From: Jiella marina
Lineage (GTDB): Bacteria > Pseudomonadota > Alphaproteobacteria > Rhizobiales > Rhizobiaceae
Direction: 5' to 3'
Length of the DNA stretch: 64,000 bases
Assembly: GCF_024359545.1 (NCBI RefSeq)
Contig: NZ_JAKQZG010000013.1
Span: 1-64,000, forward strand
The translations under genes and the position numbers were made by a program. Each line of letters opens with the position of its first letter. Within the stretch, counting starts at the first letter, position 1. Below are positions 30,931 to 36,473 of this stretch, one piece after another. The notes beneath the pieces were generated by a model, which saw only the letters and a list, made by a program, of their open reading frames with translations, made no database searches and was not told the DNA's origin.

Positions 30931-32505
30931 ATGAAACACGACGTCTGTGCGCTGGCCGATCTGTCGGAGACCGGTCTCCACGAAATCGAAATCGGCGAGA
31001 TGAAGATCCTCCTCGCCCGCGACGGCGACAAGGTCTATGCGACCGGCGCGAACTGCACCCACAAGGGCGCACCGCTCAAGAACGGCGCGCGGGTCGGCAA
31101 CCGGGTCATCTGCCCTTGGCACCACGCCAATTTCGATCTGGAGACCGGCGACCACATCGAGCCGCCGGGCCAGGGCTGCCTGTCGCGCTTTGCCACCGAG
31201 GTTTCGGACGGCCGCGTGATGGTGGAAGTGCCGGAAGGCGCTCAGCCACATCGGCCGGAAGTCGATCCGGCCGAGCGCAAGGCCGGCGGCGAGCGGATTT
31301 TCGCGATCGTCGGCGGCGGGGCGGCCGGCCTTGCCTGTGCGCAGGAACTGGTTCGTCGCGGATTCGACGGTCGCATCGTCATGTTCTCCGACGATGGCGA
31401 GACGCCCTATGACCGCACCGCGCTGTCGAAGACCTACATGCAGGGCAAGACGGACGACGACGACCTGCCACTGGTCGGTGCGGGCGGCCTCGACGAGATC
31501 GGGGTCGAGCGGATCACGGAAAAGGTCTCGCGCATCGACGCGGCCAACCGGACCATCCACTTTGCCGGCAAAGACGGGGTGAACGAAGGCCTCGTCTACG
31601 ACCGCTGCTTCGCAGCCCCCGGCAGCGCCTCCGGCACGCTCCCGCTCGAAAACGCCGACCTGCCGAACGTCTTCACCCTGCGTACCCATGAGGACGCAAT
31701 CCCCATCCGAAAGGCGGCGGAAGCGGCTCAGAACATCGTCATCGTCGGCTCCGGCTTCATCGGCATGGAAGTCGCGGCGGCCCTCGTCCAGCGCGGCAAG
31801 TCCGTCACCGTCGTCTCTCAGGAGACGCTGCCCTTCGCCTCGAAGTTCGGCGATGCGGTCGCCGGTCAGATCGCGGCCCAGCATCGCGAGAAGGGCGTCG
31901 ACCTGAAGACCAACAGCGCCGTATCGAAGATCGAGGAAAAGCGCGGGGCCGTCAGCGCGGTGCATCTGGCAAGCGGCGAGGAAGTGCCGGCGGACATGGT
32001 GCTGATCGCCGTCGGAGCGCGGCCGCGTCTCGACATTTTCGGCGAAGGCGTCGAAGGCGGAATCGAGGTCGGGGCCGACCTGTCGGTCGATCCGGCCCTC
32101 TATGTCGGTGGCGATGTGGCGAAGTTCCCCCTGCCGGGCCAGGGATACAGCACCCGCATCGAGCACTGGCGGGTCGCCGAACAGCATGGACGCCACGCGG
32201 CCCGCGCCATGCTCGGCGACACGACGCCCTTTTCCGGCATCCCCTTCTTCTGGTCGGCGCAATACGGCCCGATCCACTATGTCGGCCATGCGAAAGGGTT
32301 CGACGAGTGCCATATCGAAGGCGATCTCGACGCCGGCAGCTACACCGCCTTCTACATCAAGGACGACAAGGTCGTCGCGGCGCTCGGCCGGGGCAAGGCG
32401 GATGTCACCGACGAGCTTCACGCGCTGATGCTGGCCTCATCGCCGACGCCCGCCAGAAGCGACCTTGCGGCGGTCAACTGGCAGCCGGGCGCCCTGTTGG
32501 TATAA
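30931..32505 (+). CDS. Rieske-FAD pyridine nucleotide-disulfide oxidoreductase
   Basis: This 524-residue two-domain protein is like animal AIFM3. Residues ~1-105 form a Rieske [2Fe-2S] domain: CTHKGAPLKNG and CPWHHANFDLETGD supply the Cys-x-His and Cys-x2-His ligands. The rest is a FAD/NAD(P)H reductase with two Rossmann folds (AIVGGGAAGLACAQEL and NIVIVGSGFIGMEVAAAL) and a ferredoxin-reductase-like C-terminus. It should pass electrons from NAD(P)H to the Rieske cluster and on to an unknown partner. It lies between the catabolic locus and the bufferin locus, 214 bases after the SDR gene; membership in either is not shown. Confidence 0.92.
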   Translation: MKHDVCALADLSETGLHEIEIGEMKILLARDGDKVYATGANCTHKGAPLKNGARVGNRVICPWHHANFDLETGDHIEPPGQGCLSRFATEVSDGRVMVEVPEGAQPHRPEVDPAERKAGGERIFAIVGGGAAGLACAQELVRRGFDGRIVMFSDDGETPYDRTALSKTYMQGKTDDDDLPLVGAGGLDEIGVERITEKVSRIDAANRTIHFAGKDGVNEGLVYDRCFAAPGSASGTLPLENADLPNVFTLRTHEDAIPIRKAAEAAQNIVIVGSGFIGMEVAAALVQRGKSVTVVSQETLPFASKFGDAVAGQIAAQHREKGVDLKTNSAVSKIEEKRGAVSAVHLASGEEVPADMVLIAVGARPRLDIFGEGVEGGIEVGADLSVDPALYVGGDVAKFPLPGQGYSTRIEHWRVAEQHGRHAARAMLGDTTPFSGIPFFWSAQYGPIHYVGHAKGFDECHIEGDLDAGSYTAFYIKDDKVVAALGRGKADVTDELHALMLASSPTPARSDLAAVNWQPGALLV

Positions 32506-32520
32506 GCCCGGCCAACGGCC

Positions 32521-33012
32521 TCACGCGACCTGGCGGAGCCCGCCCGAACGGGCCGGCTTCTGCCAAGGCAGAAGCGCGTCGGCGGAAATCCTGCCCGCGC
32601 CATAGACCATGAGCGCCAACGCCATTGCGGCCCAGGGCAGATGGAAATTCGCCCAGCCGCCGGGCACCGTGATCTGGATCACCGCCGTCATGATCAGGAT
32701 GCCGAAGGCCGCGAAGCGCGTCCCGAGCCCGAGGACGAGGAGAATCGGCAGCACGATCTCGGCGATGCCGGCCAGCGTCGCGGAGACGAGCGGGAACGGA
32801 TAGGCATATTGCGCGCCGAGAATATGCAGCTTGAATTCCTGCTGGAACAGGTATTTCGCGCCGGTCGAGAGCTGCAGGAAGCCCTCCCATTTCGTCAGGC
32901 CGGATTTGAAGAACGGCACGGCCAAGGCGATGCGCAGGGCCAGGAGCGGCAGCGACGCTGGAATGGCGGCGAGCACGGTTTCGGCTCGTTTCAGAGCTTC
33001 AAGCATCGTCAT
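32521..33012 (-). CDS. bufD: DoxX-family membrane protein, bufferin cluster (BufD-like)
   Basis: This 163-residue membrane protein has four hydrophobic segments and the DoxX signature ALAVPFFKSGLTKWEGF. Its first 14 bases overlap the end of the DUF2063 gene, so it is the last gene of the bufferin operon. In the Caulobacter bufferin operon a DoxX protein holds the same position, as I recall. A role in redox or metal handling of the modified peptide at the membrane is inferred. It converges with the Rieske-FAD gene. Confidence 0.85.
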   Translation of the reverse strand: MTMLEALKRAETVLAAIPASLPLLALRIALAVPFFKSGLTKWEGFLQLSTGAKYLFQQEFKLHILGAQYAYPFPLVSATLAGIAEIVLPILLVLGLGTRFAAFGILIMTAVIQITVPGGWANFHLPWAAMALALMVYGAGRISADALLPWQKPARSGGLRQVA

Positions 33013-33772
33013 TCTCCTTGATGATGGGGGCGTCGTCGGAAAAGGCGCCGAGACGGATTAGCGCCGTCAGCGCGCGGCCGAAGTCGAAAGTCGGCTCGTC
33101 AGCTGCGGCCATTGCGGCCTCGCCCAGAGGTGCGCCGTTCAAAAGCGCAGCCGCGAAGGCGACATCCCAAGCAGGCAGAACGGTGAGTTCGCAGCGTATG
33201 TCCGGCCGTGTGATCAGGACGGCTTCCGCGACCCAGTGTTCCACCGGCCGAACCGGCTCCGCCTGATGGTTGGCGAAGATCGTGCCGATCGGGAAGGCAG
33301 ACGAGACGAGCCGGGCCGCCGGATGCGGCGTCAGCCGCGCGGTGCCGAGCCTCTCGGGCGGGACCGCGGCGAGCGCATCCATGGTCAGAAGGCCGGCGTC
33401 CCGCGAATGAAACGCCGAAGCCATGGCATCTTCGAGACGCGCGATATCCGACAGATAGGGAACGCTCCGGGCCGGCTCGAAGCCGGCCACGAAGGCCGGA
33501 AAGCCGCTGCCATAGGTGAGAAGCACCGGCGATGTCGGGCGTTCGACGTCGACATAGGCTCGCGCCATGCCGCGAAAGAAATCCTCGCCCACGAGCCGCA
33601 TCACCAGCGGGTAGCGCCGCTCCAGCGCGCGGGTCAGGCCGACGCCGACATTGTTGCGATAGACCGCGAAGCGCCGGGCATCGAGCCGGCCGCAGCGTGT
33701 GGAAAGCCCCTCCGGCATGACCGCTTCGCGCGCCAGGAGATAGGTCGAGAACATGGCGCCGACCTCCGTCAT
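32999..33772 (-). CDS. bufC: DUF2063 partner protein of the iron enzyme (BufC-like)
   Basis: This 257-residue protein has an N-terminal DUF2063 domain (RFAVYRNNVGVGLTRALERR and VMRLVGEDFFRGMARAYV). In RiPP clusters, DUF2063 proteins pair with DUF692 enzymes and are thought to bring the precursor peptide to them. It overlaps bufB by four bases and bufD by 14. The partner role is family knowledge; the sequence shows only the domain and the operon. Confidence 0.85.
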   Translation of the reverse strand: MTEVGAMFSTYLLAREAVMPEGLSTRCGRLDARRFAVYRNNVGVGLTRALERRYPLVMRLVGEDFFRGMARAYVDVERPTSPVLLTYGSGFPAFVAGFEPARSVPYLSDIARLEDAMASAFHSRDAGLLTMDALAAVPPERLGTARLTPHPAARLVSSAFPIGTIFANHQAEPVRPVEHWVAEAVLITRPDIRCELTVLPAWDVAFAAALLNGAPLGEAAMAAADEPTFDFGRALTALIRLGAFSDDAPIIKENDDA

Positions 33773-34638
33773 GCGGCGGACCGGCTGATAGCCGCCTCCG
33801 AAGACGCTAGGCGAGCCCGGGCAAGCGCCGCCTCGACCTTTTTGGCCTCTGCATAAAGCGCCGGGAATTCAGGGACGTCATTGTCCCATTCGACGAGGGT
33901 CGGGAGCGGTCCGGCCCTGTCGAGCATGTGGGAATAGAGCGCGAAGACGTCGGGCAGGACCGGCGAGGCGTGGGCATCGATCAGAAGCCGCTCGCCCGCC
34001 TCGTCTTCGGTCTCGTCATAGCCCGCGAGATGGATCTCGCCGACCTTCTCCATCGGAAAGCGGTCGATATAGGCGAAGGGATCGAGCCGGTGATTGACCG
34101 CCGAAACCATGACGTTGTTGACGTCCAGCAGCAAGCCGCAGCCGGTCCGATCGCTGATTGCGGCGAGGAAGTCGATCTCTTCGATCGTCGATTCCGCGAA
34201 GATCAGATAGGTGGAGGGGTTTTCGAGCAGCATGCGCGTGCCCACCGCCTCCTGCGTCTCGGCGACGTGCCGCGCGACGCGGTCGAGGGTTTCCGGCGTA
34301 TAGGGCAACGGAAGAAGATCGTTGAAGAACTCGCTGTCATGGGTCGACCAGGCGAGATGTTCCGAAAAGCTCGCCGGGCGGTAGCGCTCGATCAGATGTC
34401 TGAGGCGCTTCAGATGATCGCGGTCGAGATCGCCCTCTCCGCCGATCGACAGGCCAACGCCGTGCAGCGAAAGCGGATAGGGCTCGGCGATCGCGGCAAG
34501 CTGGCGATGCGGCAGACCGCCCTCGCCCATGTAGTTTTCCGCATGAACCTCGAAAAAGCCGAGGGCCGGCCGTGTCTTCAAGATCGTATCGACGTGGTCG
34601 GGCTTGAGGCCGAGGCCGGCGGCGACGGGCAGTGCCAT
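33769..34638 (-). CDS. bufB: DUF692 multinuclear non-heme iron enzyme (BufB-like)
   Basis: This 289-residue TIM-barrel protein is of the MNIO family (MbnB, BufB), which uses two or three iron atoms and oxygen to modify cysteines of a peptide. The ligand-bearing segments are present: FFEVHAENY, LSLHGVGLS, FSEHLAW, LLENPSTY, LLDVNNVMVSAVNH, GEIHLAGY and LIDAHASPV. AGGGAGG is six bases before the ATG at 34638, better spaced than the ATG two codons earlier, which abuts it. It lies 82 bases after bufA with a strong hairpin between. Predicted substrate is BufA, on its central cysteines. Confidence 0.92.
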   Translation of the reverse strand: MALPVAAGLGLKPDHVDTILKTRPALGFFEVHAENYMGEGGLPHRQLAAIAEPYPLSLHGVGLSIGGEGDLDRDHLKRLRHLIERYRPASFSEHLAWSTHDSEFFNDLLPLPYTPETLDRVARHVAETQEAVGTRMLLENPSTYLIFAESTIEEIDFLAAISDRTGCGLLLDVNNVMVSAVNHRLDPFAYIDRFPMEKVGEIHLAGYDETEDEAGERLLIDAHASPVLPDVFALYSHMLDRAGPLPTLVEWDNDVPEFPALYAEAKKVEAALARARLASSEAAISRSAA

Positions 34639-34671
34639 GGTCATCCTCCCTGCGTGTCTTTCCGGATGGCA

Positions 34672-34695
34672 TGGCCCGGCGGGTTCGCCGGGCCA
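34672..34695 (-). promoter_or_regulatory. Hairpin between bufA and bufB
   Basis: TGGCCCGGCG and CGCCGGGCCA form a perfect 10-bp stem with a four-base loop, 25 bases past the bufA stop. No T-tract follows. It probably protects the bufA message or limits read-through, so that precursor peptide is made in excess of enzyme. Confidence 0.65.
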
Positions 34696-34720
34696 CATTG
34701 TGCTTGGAGCGGCCGACGGC

Positions 34721-35014
34721 TCAGCTCGGCAGATCGCGTTCCAGGGGCTCCAGCGAGCCCATGCGATCACCCGGGACTTCCATCGTCTCGCAGGTGCCGG
34801 CCGGAACGGCCTTCCAGGCATTGCCCTGATAGTCGACGGAGGAGGTGCCGGCGCAGGTCGTGCCCTCGCCTGCGGCGCAGTCGTTCTGTCCGGCCAGTGC
34901 CACGCCGTAGCACTTGACCGTCCCCTCCTCCGCGGCGGATGCCGGGACAGCGGAGGTGGCAAGGGCAGCGGCCAGCGAGCCGGCGAGCGCGAGGTGGAAT
35001 GAGCGGCGATCCAT
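34721..35014 (-). CDS. bufA: Bufferin-type RiPP precursor, DUF2282 (BufA1-like)
   Basis: This 97-residue exported protein has a Sec signal peptide ([17 protein letters not shown], cleavage near PASAA). The mature part has four cysteines at 35, 46, 54 and 75 in the DUF2282 spacing: [16 protein letters not shown], then TTCAG and GTCETM. In the Caulobacter prototype the two central cysteines become copper-binding heterocycles and the outer two form a disulfide (recalled from literature). CAGGGAG lies nine bases before the ATG. The last ~20 residues are charged and not part of the conserved core. Confidence 0.92.
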
Positions 35015-35074
35015 GATTTGGTCTCCCTGAGGATTGCACGTTGACGAGGCATGTCATCGGCCTCGTCTTGCCGC

Positions 35075-35100
35075 TTCGCCGGCCGCCGCAATGGCGTTAC
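35075..35100 (-). promoter_or_regulatory. Candidate SigF promoter of the buf operon
   Basis: On the minus strand the sequence is GTAACG, 16 bases, then CGAA, ending about 61 bases before the bufA start. The consensus I recall for Caulobacter SigF is GTAACC-N16-CGAA, so only one base differs and the spacing is exact. It sits between bufA and the divergent sigma factor gene. Confidence 0.7.
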
Positions 35101-35277
35101 GCAGCGTCGGGACCTCTCACGACCATGTGATTGGGCAGCGACGGATCCCATGGGAAAAGAGGGCATGGTCCGGCTCGCCCCGGCCGCTTGCCCCAATCGC
35201 TTGCCACGGGGCCGTGCCGAGGTGAAAATCCTTGGCGGGACTGAAACAAATCCTTGGACCGATCCGAAAGACGAGAC

Positions 35278-35832
35278 ATGCCGCCTGCTTCATCGTCCAA
35301 GCTCCAGGCGCTCGACGATCTGCTCTTGGCCGCCAATGCCGGCGACGAAAAGGCTTATCGCGCGTTCCTGGTCGAGGTTTCGGTGATCGTCAGGCGCTTC
35401 GCCACCCGGCGAATGCCCCGACAATCGGCCGGGTTCGACGTCGAGGATCTGGTGCAGGAGATACTTCTGGCGGTGCACAACAAGCGCCACACCTGGCGGG
35501 CGGGAGAACCCGTCGCGCCCTGGCTGTTCGCGATCGCGCGCTACAAGGCGATCGACGCCTATCGGCGGCGCGGCCGACGGATCGAGGTGGATATCGCCGA
35601 TTTCAGCGATGTCATCGAGGATCCGGACGCCGTTCCCTCCGCGGTCGGCCACGACGTGTCGCGCGCGCTCGATTCGCTCGGCGGACGCCAGCGGGCGGTC
35701 GTCTCGGCGCTGTCGGTGGAAGGCAAGTCGATCGGCGAGACGGCGAAGAAGCTCGACATGAGCGAAGGCGCGGTCCGGGTGGCGTTTCATCGGGGCCTGG
35801 CGGCCATCGCCAAGAAATTCGGACGAGACTGA
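35278..35832 (+). CDS. sigF: ECF-type RNA polymerase sigma factor, SigF-like
   Basis: This 184-residue sigma-70 family protein of the ECF type has only regions 2 and 4. Region 2 reads DVEDLVQEILLAVHNKRHTW with PWLFAIARYKAIDAYRR; region 4 ends with ALSVEGKSIGETAKKLDMSEGAVRVAFHRGL. The gene pair with a DUF1109 membrane protein (next gene, two bases away) and the divergent bufferin operon point to the SigF group, which answers to metal and oxidative stress in Caulobacter. The ATG at 35278 is used; an in-frame TTG 24 bases upstream is possible. Confidence 0.87.
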   Translation: MPPASSSKLQALDDLLLAANAGDEKAYRAFLVEVSVIVRRFATRRMPRQSAGFDVEDLVQEILLAVHNKRHTWRAGEPVAPWLFAIARYKAIDAYRRRGRRIEVDIADFSDVIEDPDAVPSAVGHDVSRALDSLGGRQRAVVSALSVEGKSIGETAKKLDMSEGAVRVAFHRGLAAIAKKFGRD

Positions 35833-35834
35833 CA

Positions 35835-36473
35835 ATGCAGACGCGTGAGTTGATCGAGGATCTGGTGGCAGGCGCCGGGCGGCAGGACCAGGGGTTCGTG
35901 CCGCCCTTCTGGGCCGTGGCGTGCCTGGCGCCGCTTCTCGCCGCCGCCGTCTTCTGGCCGGCGCTCGGACCGCGGCCGGACTTCGCGGCCGCCCTTCAGA
36001 CCGTGCGCTTCGACCTGAAGTTCGTGCAGGCGGGACTGCTCGCGGTGACCGCCTTCGCGACGCTGGTGGCACTGGCGCGGCCAGCCCAGCCATGGCGCCA
36101 TCGCGCCCTCACGATCCTTCTGCCGGCCCTGGTGCTGGCGTCCGCCGTCCTAATGGAACTGGCGCTCGTGCCACCGGAACTCTGGGCCACCCGCGCGGCC
36201 GGGTCCAACGCGCTGATCTGCCTGACGGCGATCCCATCGATCGGCGCTCCGGTGCTTGCCCTGTTTCTCTTCGCCCTCCGCCGCCAGGCGCCAACGCGGC
36301 CGATGCTTTCCGGCTCCGTCGCCGGCCTGGGCGCGGCGGGGACCGCGGCGGTCTTCTACGCCGCCCACTGCACCGACGATTCACCGCTTTTCGTGGCGCT
36401 CTGGTATCCGCTGGCCTCCCTGATCCTCGTGGCCGCCGGCGCCTTGATCGGAAGCCGGGTCTTGCGCTGGTAA
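35835..36473 (+). CDS. nrsF: Membrane anti-sigma factor NrsF, DUF1109
   Basis: This 212-residue protein has six predicted transmembrane segments and matches DUF1109. Two cysteines stand at 129 (SNALICLTAIPSIG) and 179 (FYAAHCTDDSPLF). The Caulobacter homologue NrsF holds SigF inactive and senses stress through two conserved cysteines near positions 131 and 181 (recalled). The short N-terminal cytosolic tail (TRELIEDLVAG) would contact the sigma factor. It starts two bases after the sigF stop. Confidence 0.88.
   Translation: MQTRELIEDLVAGAGRQDQGFVPPFWAVACLAPLLAAAVFWPALGPRPDFAAALQTVRFDLKFVQAGLLAVTAFATLVALARPAQPWRHRALTILLPALVLASAVLMELALVPPELWATRAAGSNALICLTAIPSIGAPVLALFLFALRRQAPTRPMLSGSVAGLGAAGTAAVFYAAHCTDDSPLFVALWYPLASLILVAAGALIGSRVLRW

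What the first reader, a model, noticed from the sequence alone, without database searches (positions are those of the whole stretch)
32521..36473. Complete bufferin RiPP operon with its own SigF/NrsF switch
Four overlapping or adjacent minus-strand genes encode a DUF2282 precursor with a signal peptide and four cysteines, a DUF692 multinuclear-iron enzyme, a DUF2063 partner and a DoxX protein. A divergent pair encodes an ECF sigma factor and a DUF1109 membrane anti-sigma factor with cysteines at 129 and 179. All six parts of the copper-protective bufferin system first described in Caulobacter are together in 4 kb, with the sigma pair directly beside the RiPP operon. Order and overlaps are seen in sequence; copper binding and modification are family knowledge; that sensor and product form one unit here is inference.
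Basis: partly seen in the sequence, partly recalled or inferred. Interest (0 to 1): 0.92.

Follow-up and report, generated by a model that had tools for sequence, protein, structure and literature searches.

The report
Copper-buffering peptide operon with stress switch
The six genes are really there: a known kind of operon that makes a modified, probably copper-binding peptide, next to a known kind of stress switch; the less expected part is that related species keep the switch after losing the peptide genes.

Summary
A DUF2282 precursor (four Cys), an MNIO/DUF692 enzyme, a DUF2063 partner and DoxX lie in a row on the minus strand, divergent from an ECF sigma factor and an NrsF/DUF1109 anti-sigma factor (C129, C179). 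It is a Buf1 bufferin operon with an ECF16 SigF/NrsF pair in a Jiella-type alphaproteobacterium. The layout is published for Caulobacter, where copper induces it, and for Sinorhizobium meliloti: a new member of a known kind. "Its own" switch is too strong. The core also precedes an exported methionine sulfoxide reductase in 10 of 10 genus members and a membrane protein/FAD disulfide-reductase pair in 8 of 10. Six of the ten lack bufABC at this locus (relics in two) and DUF2282 anywhere, yet keep SigF/NrsF open and under purifying selection. The bufferin looks like an optional output of a shared envelope-stress switch. Copper binding, peptide modification and the inducer were not testable here.

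The parts
34721..35014 (-). bufA: DUF2282 (Buf1) precursor, 97 aa, signal-peptide-like N-terminus, Cys 35/46/54/75
   Evidence: PF10048 E=7.1e-25; Cys positions; all four core Cys invariant in 11 of 11 aligned sequences, the window's included
33769..34638 (-). bufB: MNIO (DUF692) bufferin maturase, 289 aa
   Evidence: PF05114 E=8.9e-103; NF050167 MNIO_BufB 374 bits, over cut-off 310; aligns with 3bww and MbnB structures
32999..33772 (-). bufC: DUF2063 partner protein, overlaps bufB by 4 nt
   Evidence: PF09836 E=3.1e-21; overlap
32521..33012 (-). doxX (bufD): DoxX-family membrane protein, overlaps bufC by 14 nt
   Evidence: PF07681 E=5.7e-17; overlap
35278..35832 (+). sigF: ECF sigma factor, ECF16/SigF-like
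   Evidence: PF04542 and PF08281; best NCBIfam NF009165 227 bits, cut-off 198; 53% identical to the sigma gene at the six-gene locus of S. meliloti 1021 pSymB, taken to be rpoE7 (that record carries no annotation)
35835..36473 (+). nrsF: NrsF/DUF1109 membrane anti-sigma factor, Cys 30/129/179
   Evidence: PF06532 E=3.4e-48; C129 and C179 invariant in 23 of 23 aligned sequences, the window's included; model with mean pLDDT 83.9
35075..35100 (-). sigma-F type promoter of bufA: GTAACG-N16-CGAA; 60 nt between the -10 element and the ATG
   Evidence: perfect 9-base core before bufA in 11 of 11 NrsF genomes and 0 of 23 without NrsF; 3 of 20000 first-order Markov resamplings of the intergenic region have it on that strand
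35243..35268 (+). sigma-F-like promoter of sigF-nrsF with a weaker -35: GAAACA-N16-CGAA, ending 9 nt before the ATG
   Evidence: GAAAC/CGAA at the same place before sigF in 9 of 10 genus members; in G002 the -10 reads GGAA (read from the sequence)

Best explanation
The locus is a Buf1 bufferin operon controlled by an ECF16 sigma/anti-sigma switch. Proposed working: NrsF, a six-helix inner-membrane protein, holds SigF. When its C129/C179 pair, predicted on the same (periplasmic) face, is oxidised or blocked by metal such as copper, SigF is released and starts transcription at GTAAC-N16/17-CGAA promoters. In this genome those are the bufABC-doxX promoter, probably its own, and two others conserved in the genus: a twin-arginine-type exported MsrB and a VTT-domain membrane protein/MerA-like FAD disulfide reductase pair. 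BufA is then modified on its central cysteines by BufB with BufC and exported to the periplasm, where it would chelate excess copper. Gene content, promoter cores, co-occurrence and losses are shown here; the chemistry, copper binding and actual inducer are taken from the families or inferred.
For: Family matches. Promoter core before bufA in 11 of 11 genomes with NrsF, including two where NrsF is not adjacent (G037, about 11 kb away; G041, another contig), against 0 of 23 genomes with DUF2282 but no NrsF (Fisher p=3.5e-9; one vote per genus, 8 of 8 against 0 of 23, p=1.3e-7). Core columns are identical among 11 bufA promoters of one spacing while spacer columns are 32% identical. Two plasmids with unlinked buf operons have the core, and both then proved to carry NrsF elsewhere on the same plasmid. 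The S. meliloti 1021 locus has the same layout with the perfect core in front of both divergent genes, and RpoE7 overexpression raises the four genes there (PMC6180224, passages). In Caulobacter copper raises the SigF regulon in all tested conditions (PMC8224329, passages). Other targets: exported MsrB 10 of 10, VTT gene 8 of 10 perfect plus 2 of 10 with GTAAT, with the FAD reductase next to it in 10 of 10; the cytosolic MsrB paralogue has 0 of 10 in its whole fetched stretch. sigF in buf-less species has pN/pS 0.13-0.26 in the five pairs computed. C129/C179 invariant in 23 of 23.
Against: The motif alone is not enriched in the own genome: 25 matches against 53 for the reversed control pattern, so single hits mean little without conservation. 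The 34-genome comparison is not phylogenetically independent. The S. meliloti pair was not induced by H2O2, Cd or chromate (PMC6180224), and Caulobacter sigF, CC2906 or CC3255 mutants were not more sensitive to dichromate or cadmium (PMC3511200). The sigF promoter has a degenerate -35 (GAAAC), so autoregulation may be weak; in G003 and G006 the VTT promoter has GTAAT.
Confidence: 0.8

Rival explanations
1. A dedicated copper-sensing unit: NrsF senses copper and the bufferin operon is its main or only target.
For: Direct adjacency and a sigma-F core before bufA. Of the 11 genomes (of 61) with both, 9 have them adjacent. In S. meliloti the operon is the most highly expressed RpoE7 target (PMC6180224). 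In Caulobacter copper induces the regulon and a sigF::Tn5 mutant is copper-sensitive (PMC8224329).
Against: The switch outlives the operon in 6 of 10 genus members and sigF stays under purifying selection. Conserved cores precede exported MsrB and the VTT gene. In Caulobacter, too, SigF drives MsrPQ besides bufferins (PMC8224329). Other ECF16 pairs respond to Cr, Cd, H2O2, singlet oxygen or HOCl.
Confidence: 0.12
2. Neighbours by chance or convenience: the bufferin operon is driven by another regulator, and the sigma pair serves other genes.
For: 23 of 34 genomes with a DUF2282 gene have no NrsF, so bufferins do not need this switch.
Against: The promoter core is before bufA in 11 of 11 NrsF genomes and 0 of 23 without, also where the genes are not adjacent. 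The Caulobacter and S. meliloti experiments show sigma-dependence (PMC3511200, PMC6180224).
Confidence: 0.04
3. The operon is here mainly for another soft metal or oxidant (gold, chromate, hypochlorite), with a copper phenotype secondary.
For: Chromium and cadmium induce SigF targets in Caulobacter (PMC3511200). Co-regulated MsrB and a disulfide reductase fit oxidant damage. The related gig cluster of Cupriavidus responds to gold, silver and copper (as told in PMC8224329, passage).
Against: Bufferins are reported to improve growth under copper stress (abstract of PMC12452194), and Caulobacter sigF mutants are sensitive to copper but not to chromate or cadmium (PMC8224329, PMC3511200). No metal data exist for this organism in what I read.
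Confidence: 0.12

Closest known systems
Sinorhizobium meliloti 1021 RpoE7-EcfR7 with SMb20530-SMb20527 (pSymB)
   Same: Same order of bacteria, same divergent layout of all six genes, perfect GTAAC-N-CGAA core before both divergent genes (locus identified by content and place, the record has no annotation); sigma overexpression activates the four genes (PMC6180224, passages).
   Different: BufA 63%, BufB 54%, SigF 53%, NrsF 47% identical. In some S. meliloti strains switch and operon are missing together (PMC6180224); in the Jiella-type genus only the operon is lost. No twin arginine in BufA.
Caulobacter crescentus/vibrioides sigF-nrsF (CC3253-CC3252) with CC3254-CC3257, the bufferin 1 operon
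   Same: Same six gene families adjacent; GTAACC-N16-CGAA promoter; two conserved NrsF Cys; transcript start mapped 61 nt before the precursor ATG, compared with a -10 element ending 60 nt before the ATG here (PMC3511200). A methionine sulfoxide reductase shares the regulon (PMC8224329).
   Different: Caulobacter SigF also drives a second DUF2282/DUF692/DUF2063 cluster and MsrPQ/yedY. Here there is one DUF2282 and one DUF692 match in the genome, and no core with up to one mismatch in the fetched stretches of the two Oxidored_molyb genes; exported MsrB and a VTT/FAD-reductase pair appear instead.
Bradyrhizobium EcfF-OsrA and Brucella BcrS-AbcS (ECF16)
   Same: ECF16 sigma with DUF1109 anti-sigma whose conserved Cys are numbered 129 and 179; methionine sulfoxide reductases in the regulon (PMC3420878, PMC8315932, passages).
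   Different: Respond to H2O2/singlet oxygen or HOCl; the adjacent Brucella target is a methionine-rich peptide plus MsrQP, not a bufferin.
Buf1 bufferin gene clusters surveyed by Antoine et al. 2025 (PMC12452194)
   Same: DUF2282 + MNIO + DUF2063 + DoxX core; sigma factor and NrsF reported in Buf1 but not Buf2 clusters.
   Different: In the section and passages I read there is no promoter test across genomes and no loss series; precursor signal peptides are described as Sec-type, and the words Tat and twin-arginine do not occur in the main text.

Membership tests
Buf1 bufferin operon | DUF2282 precursor with four conserved Cys | tested here: met
   PF10048 E=7e-25; the four core Cys invariant in 11 of 11 sequences, several of them partial
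Buf1 bufferin operon | N-terminal signal peptide on the precursor | tested here: inconclusive
   By eye only: basic n-region, hydrophobic stretch, small residues near ASA; no signal-peptide program was run, and the RR motif leaves Sec or Tat open
Buf1 bufferin operon | MNIO (DUF692) enzyme of the BufB type | tested here: met
   NF050167 374 bits against cut-off 310
Buf1 bufferin operon | DUF2063 partner and DoxX in the operon | tested here: met
   PF09836 and PF07681 over cut-off; the narrower NCBIfam HvfC and HvfX equivalogs are below theirs
Buf1 bufferin operon | Thiooxazole on the central Cys, copper binding, growth benefit in copper | not testable with these tools
   Needs mass spectrometry and growth tests
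ECF16 SigF / NrsF switch | ECF sigma followed by a DUF1109/NrsF membrane protein | tested here: met
   PF04542, PF08281, PF06532; genes 2 nt apart
ECF16 SigF / NrsF switch | Two conserved Cys of the anti-sigma factor | tested here: met
   C129 and C179 invariant in 23 of 23
ECF16 SigF / NrsF switch | GTAAC-N-CGAA promoters of target genes | tested here: met
   bufA, msrB, VTT promoters; the sigF promoter itself only as GAAAC
ECF16 SigF / NrsF switch | Release of sigma on metal or oxidant stress through the Cys pair | not testable with these tools
   Shown only in relatives (PMC3420878, PMC3511200)
NCBIfam equivalog AntiSigF_NrsF (NF042994) | Score over the equivalog cut-off | tested here: not met
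   91.8 bits against cut-off 300: same Pfam family, not this narrow equivalog

The most novel reading that the evidence does not exclude
In this lineage SigF/NrsF is kept for envelope repair against metal or oxidant damage to thiols and methionines (exported MsrB, VTT membrane protein plus MerA-like disulfide reductase). Copper-buffering peptide synthesis is a plug-in output that has been discarded two or three times within one genus while the switch stayed. A further twist not excluded: the precursor carries an RRx[F/L] twin-arginine motif in this lineage (5 of 5, against 1 of 34 others), so it could leave by the Tat route after modification, which would answer how premature export is avoided.
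Probability: 0.4. Interest if true: 0.5.

Novelty: new member of a known kind. Interest (0 to 1): 0.37.

Why it matters
The operon is a further, well-formed example of a described system. What can be built on is the comparison around it. A promoter core whose presence before bufA matches the presence of the anti-sigma gene in 34 of 34 genomes makes 'sensor and product form one unit' a tested statement and gives a simple predictor for which bufferin operons answer to SigF/NrsF. The genus offers natural with/without pairs (J. pelagia with the operon, J. pacifica with bufABC deleted) in which to ask what NrsF senses and what the bufferin adds.

Tried and rejected
Rejected: the idea that the operon was gained in the buf-positive species. 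The same place between the Rieske/FAD reductase gene and sigF is occupied in the outgroup G035, and relics remain in G006 and G007. Rejected: the Caulobacter-type yedY/msrP target; no core with up to one mismatch in the fetched stretches of either Oxidored_molyb gene. Own-genome hits near gene starts other than bufA, msrB and VTT (DUF547, DUF1344, znuA-like, CcdA-like by eye) were not followed, being 15-nt-spaced, inside another frame or incidental-looking; their conservation was not tested. Genome-wide motif counting led nowhere: 25 matches against 53 for the reversed pattern. No solved structure matches BufA at E up to 1; the best for BufC is E=0.027. The distance between C129 and C179 could not be measured because no model coordinates are in the Python box.

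Limits of the key counts: one bufA per genome was examined; the second DUF2282 matches of G044, G047, G050 and G059 were not looked at. One of the 23 NrsF-less genomes (G052) has a one-mismatch hit 477 nt upstream. The spacer comparison leaves out G037 and G041, whose spacing is one shorter. Of 346 plasmid records with a BufB relative only two were opened around that gene. In one search the upstream window was 260 nt and missed the msrB cores of G004 and G008; the wider one search found them, and the paralogue control was therefore repeated over whole stretches (0 of 10). In one search three cytosolic copies had two-mismatch hits (L096, L098, L104). pN/pS was computed for nine chosen pairs, not all; for nrsF it is higher (0.30-0.51 in buf-less pairs, 0.28-0.49 in pairs with the operon). 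bufB and bufC were not sought genome-wide in the buf-less species. No signal-peptide or Tat program was run. Names for G001, G004, G006, G008, G009 and G035 rest on equal contig lengths.

PMC8224329 (passages) shows copper induction of the Caulobacter SigF regulon, bufferins and MsrPQ included, and a copper-sensitive sigF mutant. I therefore lowered the 'other metal or oxidant' rival from 0.2 to 0.12, the novel case from 0.45 to 0.4 (interest if true 0.55 to 0.5) and overall interest from 0.4 to 0.37.


Full report
What is there. On the minus strand bufA (DUF2282, 97 aa), bufB (DUF692/MNIO, 289 aa), bufC (DUF2063, 257 aa) and doxX (163 aa) follow each other with an 82-nt gap and overlaps of 4 and 14 nt. 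Divergently, sigF (184 aa) and nrsF (212 aa) are 2 nt apart. The Pfam matches are over their cut-offs, and bufB passes the narrow NCBIfam BufB equivalog; bufA, bufC, doxX and nrsF do not pass theirs. NrsF has Cys 30, 129 and 179, BufA Cys 35, 46, 54 and 75. The genome has one match each to PF05114, PF10048 and PF06532. The nearest named genomes are Jiella species and genus mates filed as Aurantimonas and Fulvimarina (names of G-handles by equal contig length). I call the genus 'Jiella-type'.

Known layout. The arrangement is published. In Caulobacter, SigF (CC3253) with NrsF (CC3252) drives CC3254-CC3257 from GTAACC-N16-CGAA under dichromate (PMC3511200, abstract and three sections read). Copper raises sigF, nrsF, both bufferin clusters and MsrPQ in all tested conditions, and a sigF::Tn5 mutant grows poorly in copper (PMC8224329, passages). 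In S. meliloti 1021, RpoE7 overexpression raises the four divergent genes SMb20530-SMb20527 (PMC6180224, passages); I found all six homologues in that layout on pSymB, with the perfect core before both divergent genes. A 2025 survey reports sigma and NrsF genes in Buf1 but not Buf2 clusters (PMC12452194, abstract, one section and passages).

Do switch and operon belong together? The window has GTAACG-N16-CGAA at 35075-35100 before bufA; 3 of 20000 first-order Markov resamplings of the intergenic stretch contain the core on that strand. Of 61 genomes (own plus 60 relatives), 20 have NrsF and 34 have DUF2282; 11 have both, 9 NrsF only, 23 DUF2282 only. A perfect GTAAC-N16/17-CGAA lies within 550 nt upstream of the precursor core in 11 of 11 genomes with both, and in 0 of 23 with DUF2282 only (one of the 23 has a one-mismatch hit). 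In two of the eleven NrsF is not adjacent: G037 about 11 kb away, G041 on another contig. Fisher p is 3.5e-9, or 1.3e-7 with one vote per genus. Among eleven promoters of equal spacing (nine from these genomes, two from plasmids) the nine core columns are identical while the 17 spacer columns are 32% identical on average, so this is not mere shared ancestry. As a forward check, two plasmid-borne buf operons without an adjacent sigma gene (Rhizobium binae p1, Agrobacterium tumefaciens pAt1D1108a) carry the perfect core, and a search then found NrsF elsewhere on both plasmids; the SigF relatives beside those NrsF genes are distant (37% and 41% identical).

The switch is not the operon's own. In the genus, NrsF is in 10 of 10 genomes but DUF2282 only in 4 of 10. 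The locus between the Rieske/FAD reductase gene and sigF is otherwise collinear. In G006 (J. pacifica) one deletion of about 2.17 kb, counted on G001, runs from inside the bufA promoter spacer to about codon 25 of doxX. G007 keeps a doxX fragment, and Aurantimonas marina keeps bufC and doxX fragments. The outgroup G035 has the full locus. On a five-protein tree (node supports 64-99) the losses need two or three events. In the five buf-less pairs computed sigF shows pN/pS 0.13-0.26, against 0.12-0.27 in three pairs with the operon; nrsF is looser in both (0.30-0.51 and 0.28-0.49); all ten sigF and nrsF stretches are free of stops. So something else must keep the switch.

Other likely targets. 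A pattern scan of the own genome gave 25 matches against 53 for the reversed control, so the motif alone is not enriched. I kept only hits with conservation. An exported MsrB with a twin-arginine-type signal (P0007; SelR domain) has the perfect core upstream in 10 of 10 genus members: 107-141 nt before the start of the match in eight, 304 and 317 nt in G004 and G008. The cytosolic MsrB paralogue of the same genomes has it in 0 of 10 over the whole fetched stretches. A VTT-domain membrane protein has it in 8 of 10, with GTAAT instead of GTAAC in the other two, G003 and G006; an FAD oxidoreductase nearest to MerA and lipoamide dehydrogenase, though under those models' cut-offs, follows it in 10 of 10. 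In 574,834 strand-bases of fetched genus loci all 23 core matches (two of them repeats of the same place) sit at bufA, msrB or the VTT gene; these loci were fetched around those genes, so this shows lack of stray matches, not genome-wide specificity. Methionine sulfoxide reductases are also in the ECF16 regulons of Caulobacter, Bradyrhizobium and Brucella (PMC8224329, PMC3420878, PMC8315932, passages).

How it most likely works. NrsF C129 and C179 are invariant in 23 of 23 sequences. In the AlphaFold2 model (mean pLDDT 83.9) C129 is near the start of one long helix and C179 just after the end of the next, so by antiparallel packing they face the same side; counting helices from a cytoplasmic N-terminus puts that side in the periplasm (inference). 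In Bradyrhizobium OsrA, C179 is needed for release on H2O2 and C129 possibly for binding (PMC3420878, passage). I therefore propose thiol oxidation or metal blockage, copper included, as the signal, release of SigF, and joint expression of repair (MsrB, disulfide reductase) and copper buffering (bufferin). The copper and thiooxazole steps rest on the family (PMC12452194, abstract and passages; PMC13097082, start of abstract in a listing and passages).

Verdict. That SigF drives both bufferins and a methionine sulfoxide reductase is already known in Caulobacter. The system is a new member of a known kind; the loss series within one genus, the promoter-tracking result and the MsrB and VTT/FAD-reductase targets are the parts I have not seen in the papers read. 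My literature searches were made, within one open-access library only.

Noticed in passing
window 34913-35014 (BufA N-terminus) and loci L025, L028, L034, L040: BufA starts MDRRSF/MDRRTF/MDRRSL: a twin-arginine RRx[F/L] motif in 5 of 5 precursors of this lineage, against 1 of 34 others examined. The hydrophobic part is nearly the same as in relatives without RR, which speaks against a full switch to Tat.
   Followed up: partly
L086-L095, about 110-320 nt upstream of exported msrB: The sigma-F core of msrB lies in a strong hairpin (z -3.3 to -6.8 in 8 of 8 folded, of 10 promoters), with -35 in or near the loop in most and -10 at the right arm. Three bufA and three VTT promoters do not fold so (z -1.4 to 0.2). 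It may be the terminator of the upstream fasciclin-domain gene, or a regulatory element.
   Followed up: partly
L030 7331-7850 (J. pacifica, G006): A clean deletion joint: the -35 half of the bufA promoter is fused to a headless doxX. In the relative G001 the two deletion ends carry a 16-nt inverted identity.
   Followed up: partly
L031 (G006) and L032 (G007): Both genomes have a second, distant SigF/NrsF pair (44-46% SigF identity), near frames that look like a cytochrome b561 and, in G006, an exported lipoprotein (by eye, no family search).
   Followed up: no
L038 (G025) and L045 (G041): SigF/NrsF pairs with perfect divergent promoters next to frames that look like a cytochrome b561 and an exported protein, with a methionine-rich peptide in G025 (by eye): perhaps the Brucella-type output on the same switch.
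   Followed up: no
window 30931-32505: A Rieske plus FAD ferredoxin-reductase fusion protein ends 15 nt from doxX and stays beside this locus in all ten genus members and in G035, also where the buf genes are gone.
   Followed up: no
plasmids collection: 346 of 72,556 plasmid records hold a BufB relative (E<=1e-30), 129 of them predicted conjugative, with Escherichia (73), Burkholderia (49) and Sinorhizobium (41) most frequent: MNIO operons travel widely.
   Followed up: no
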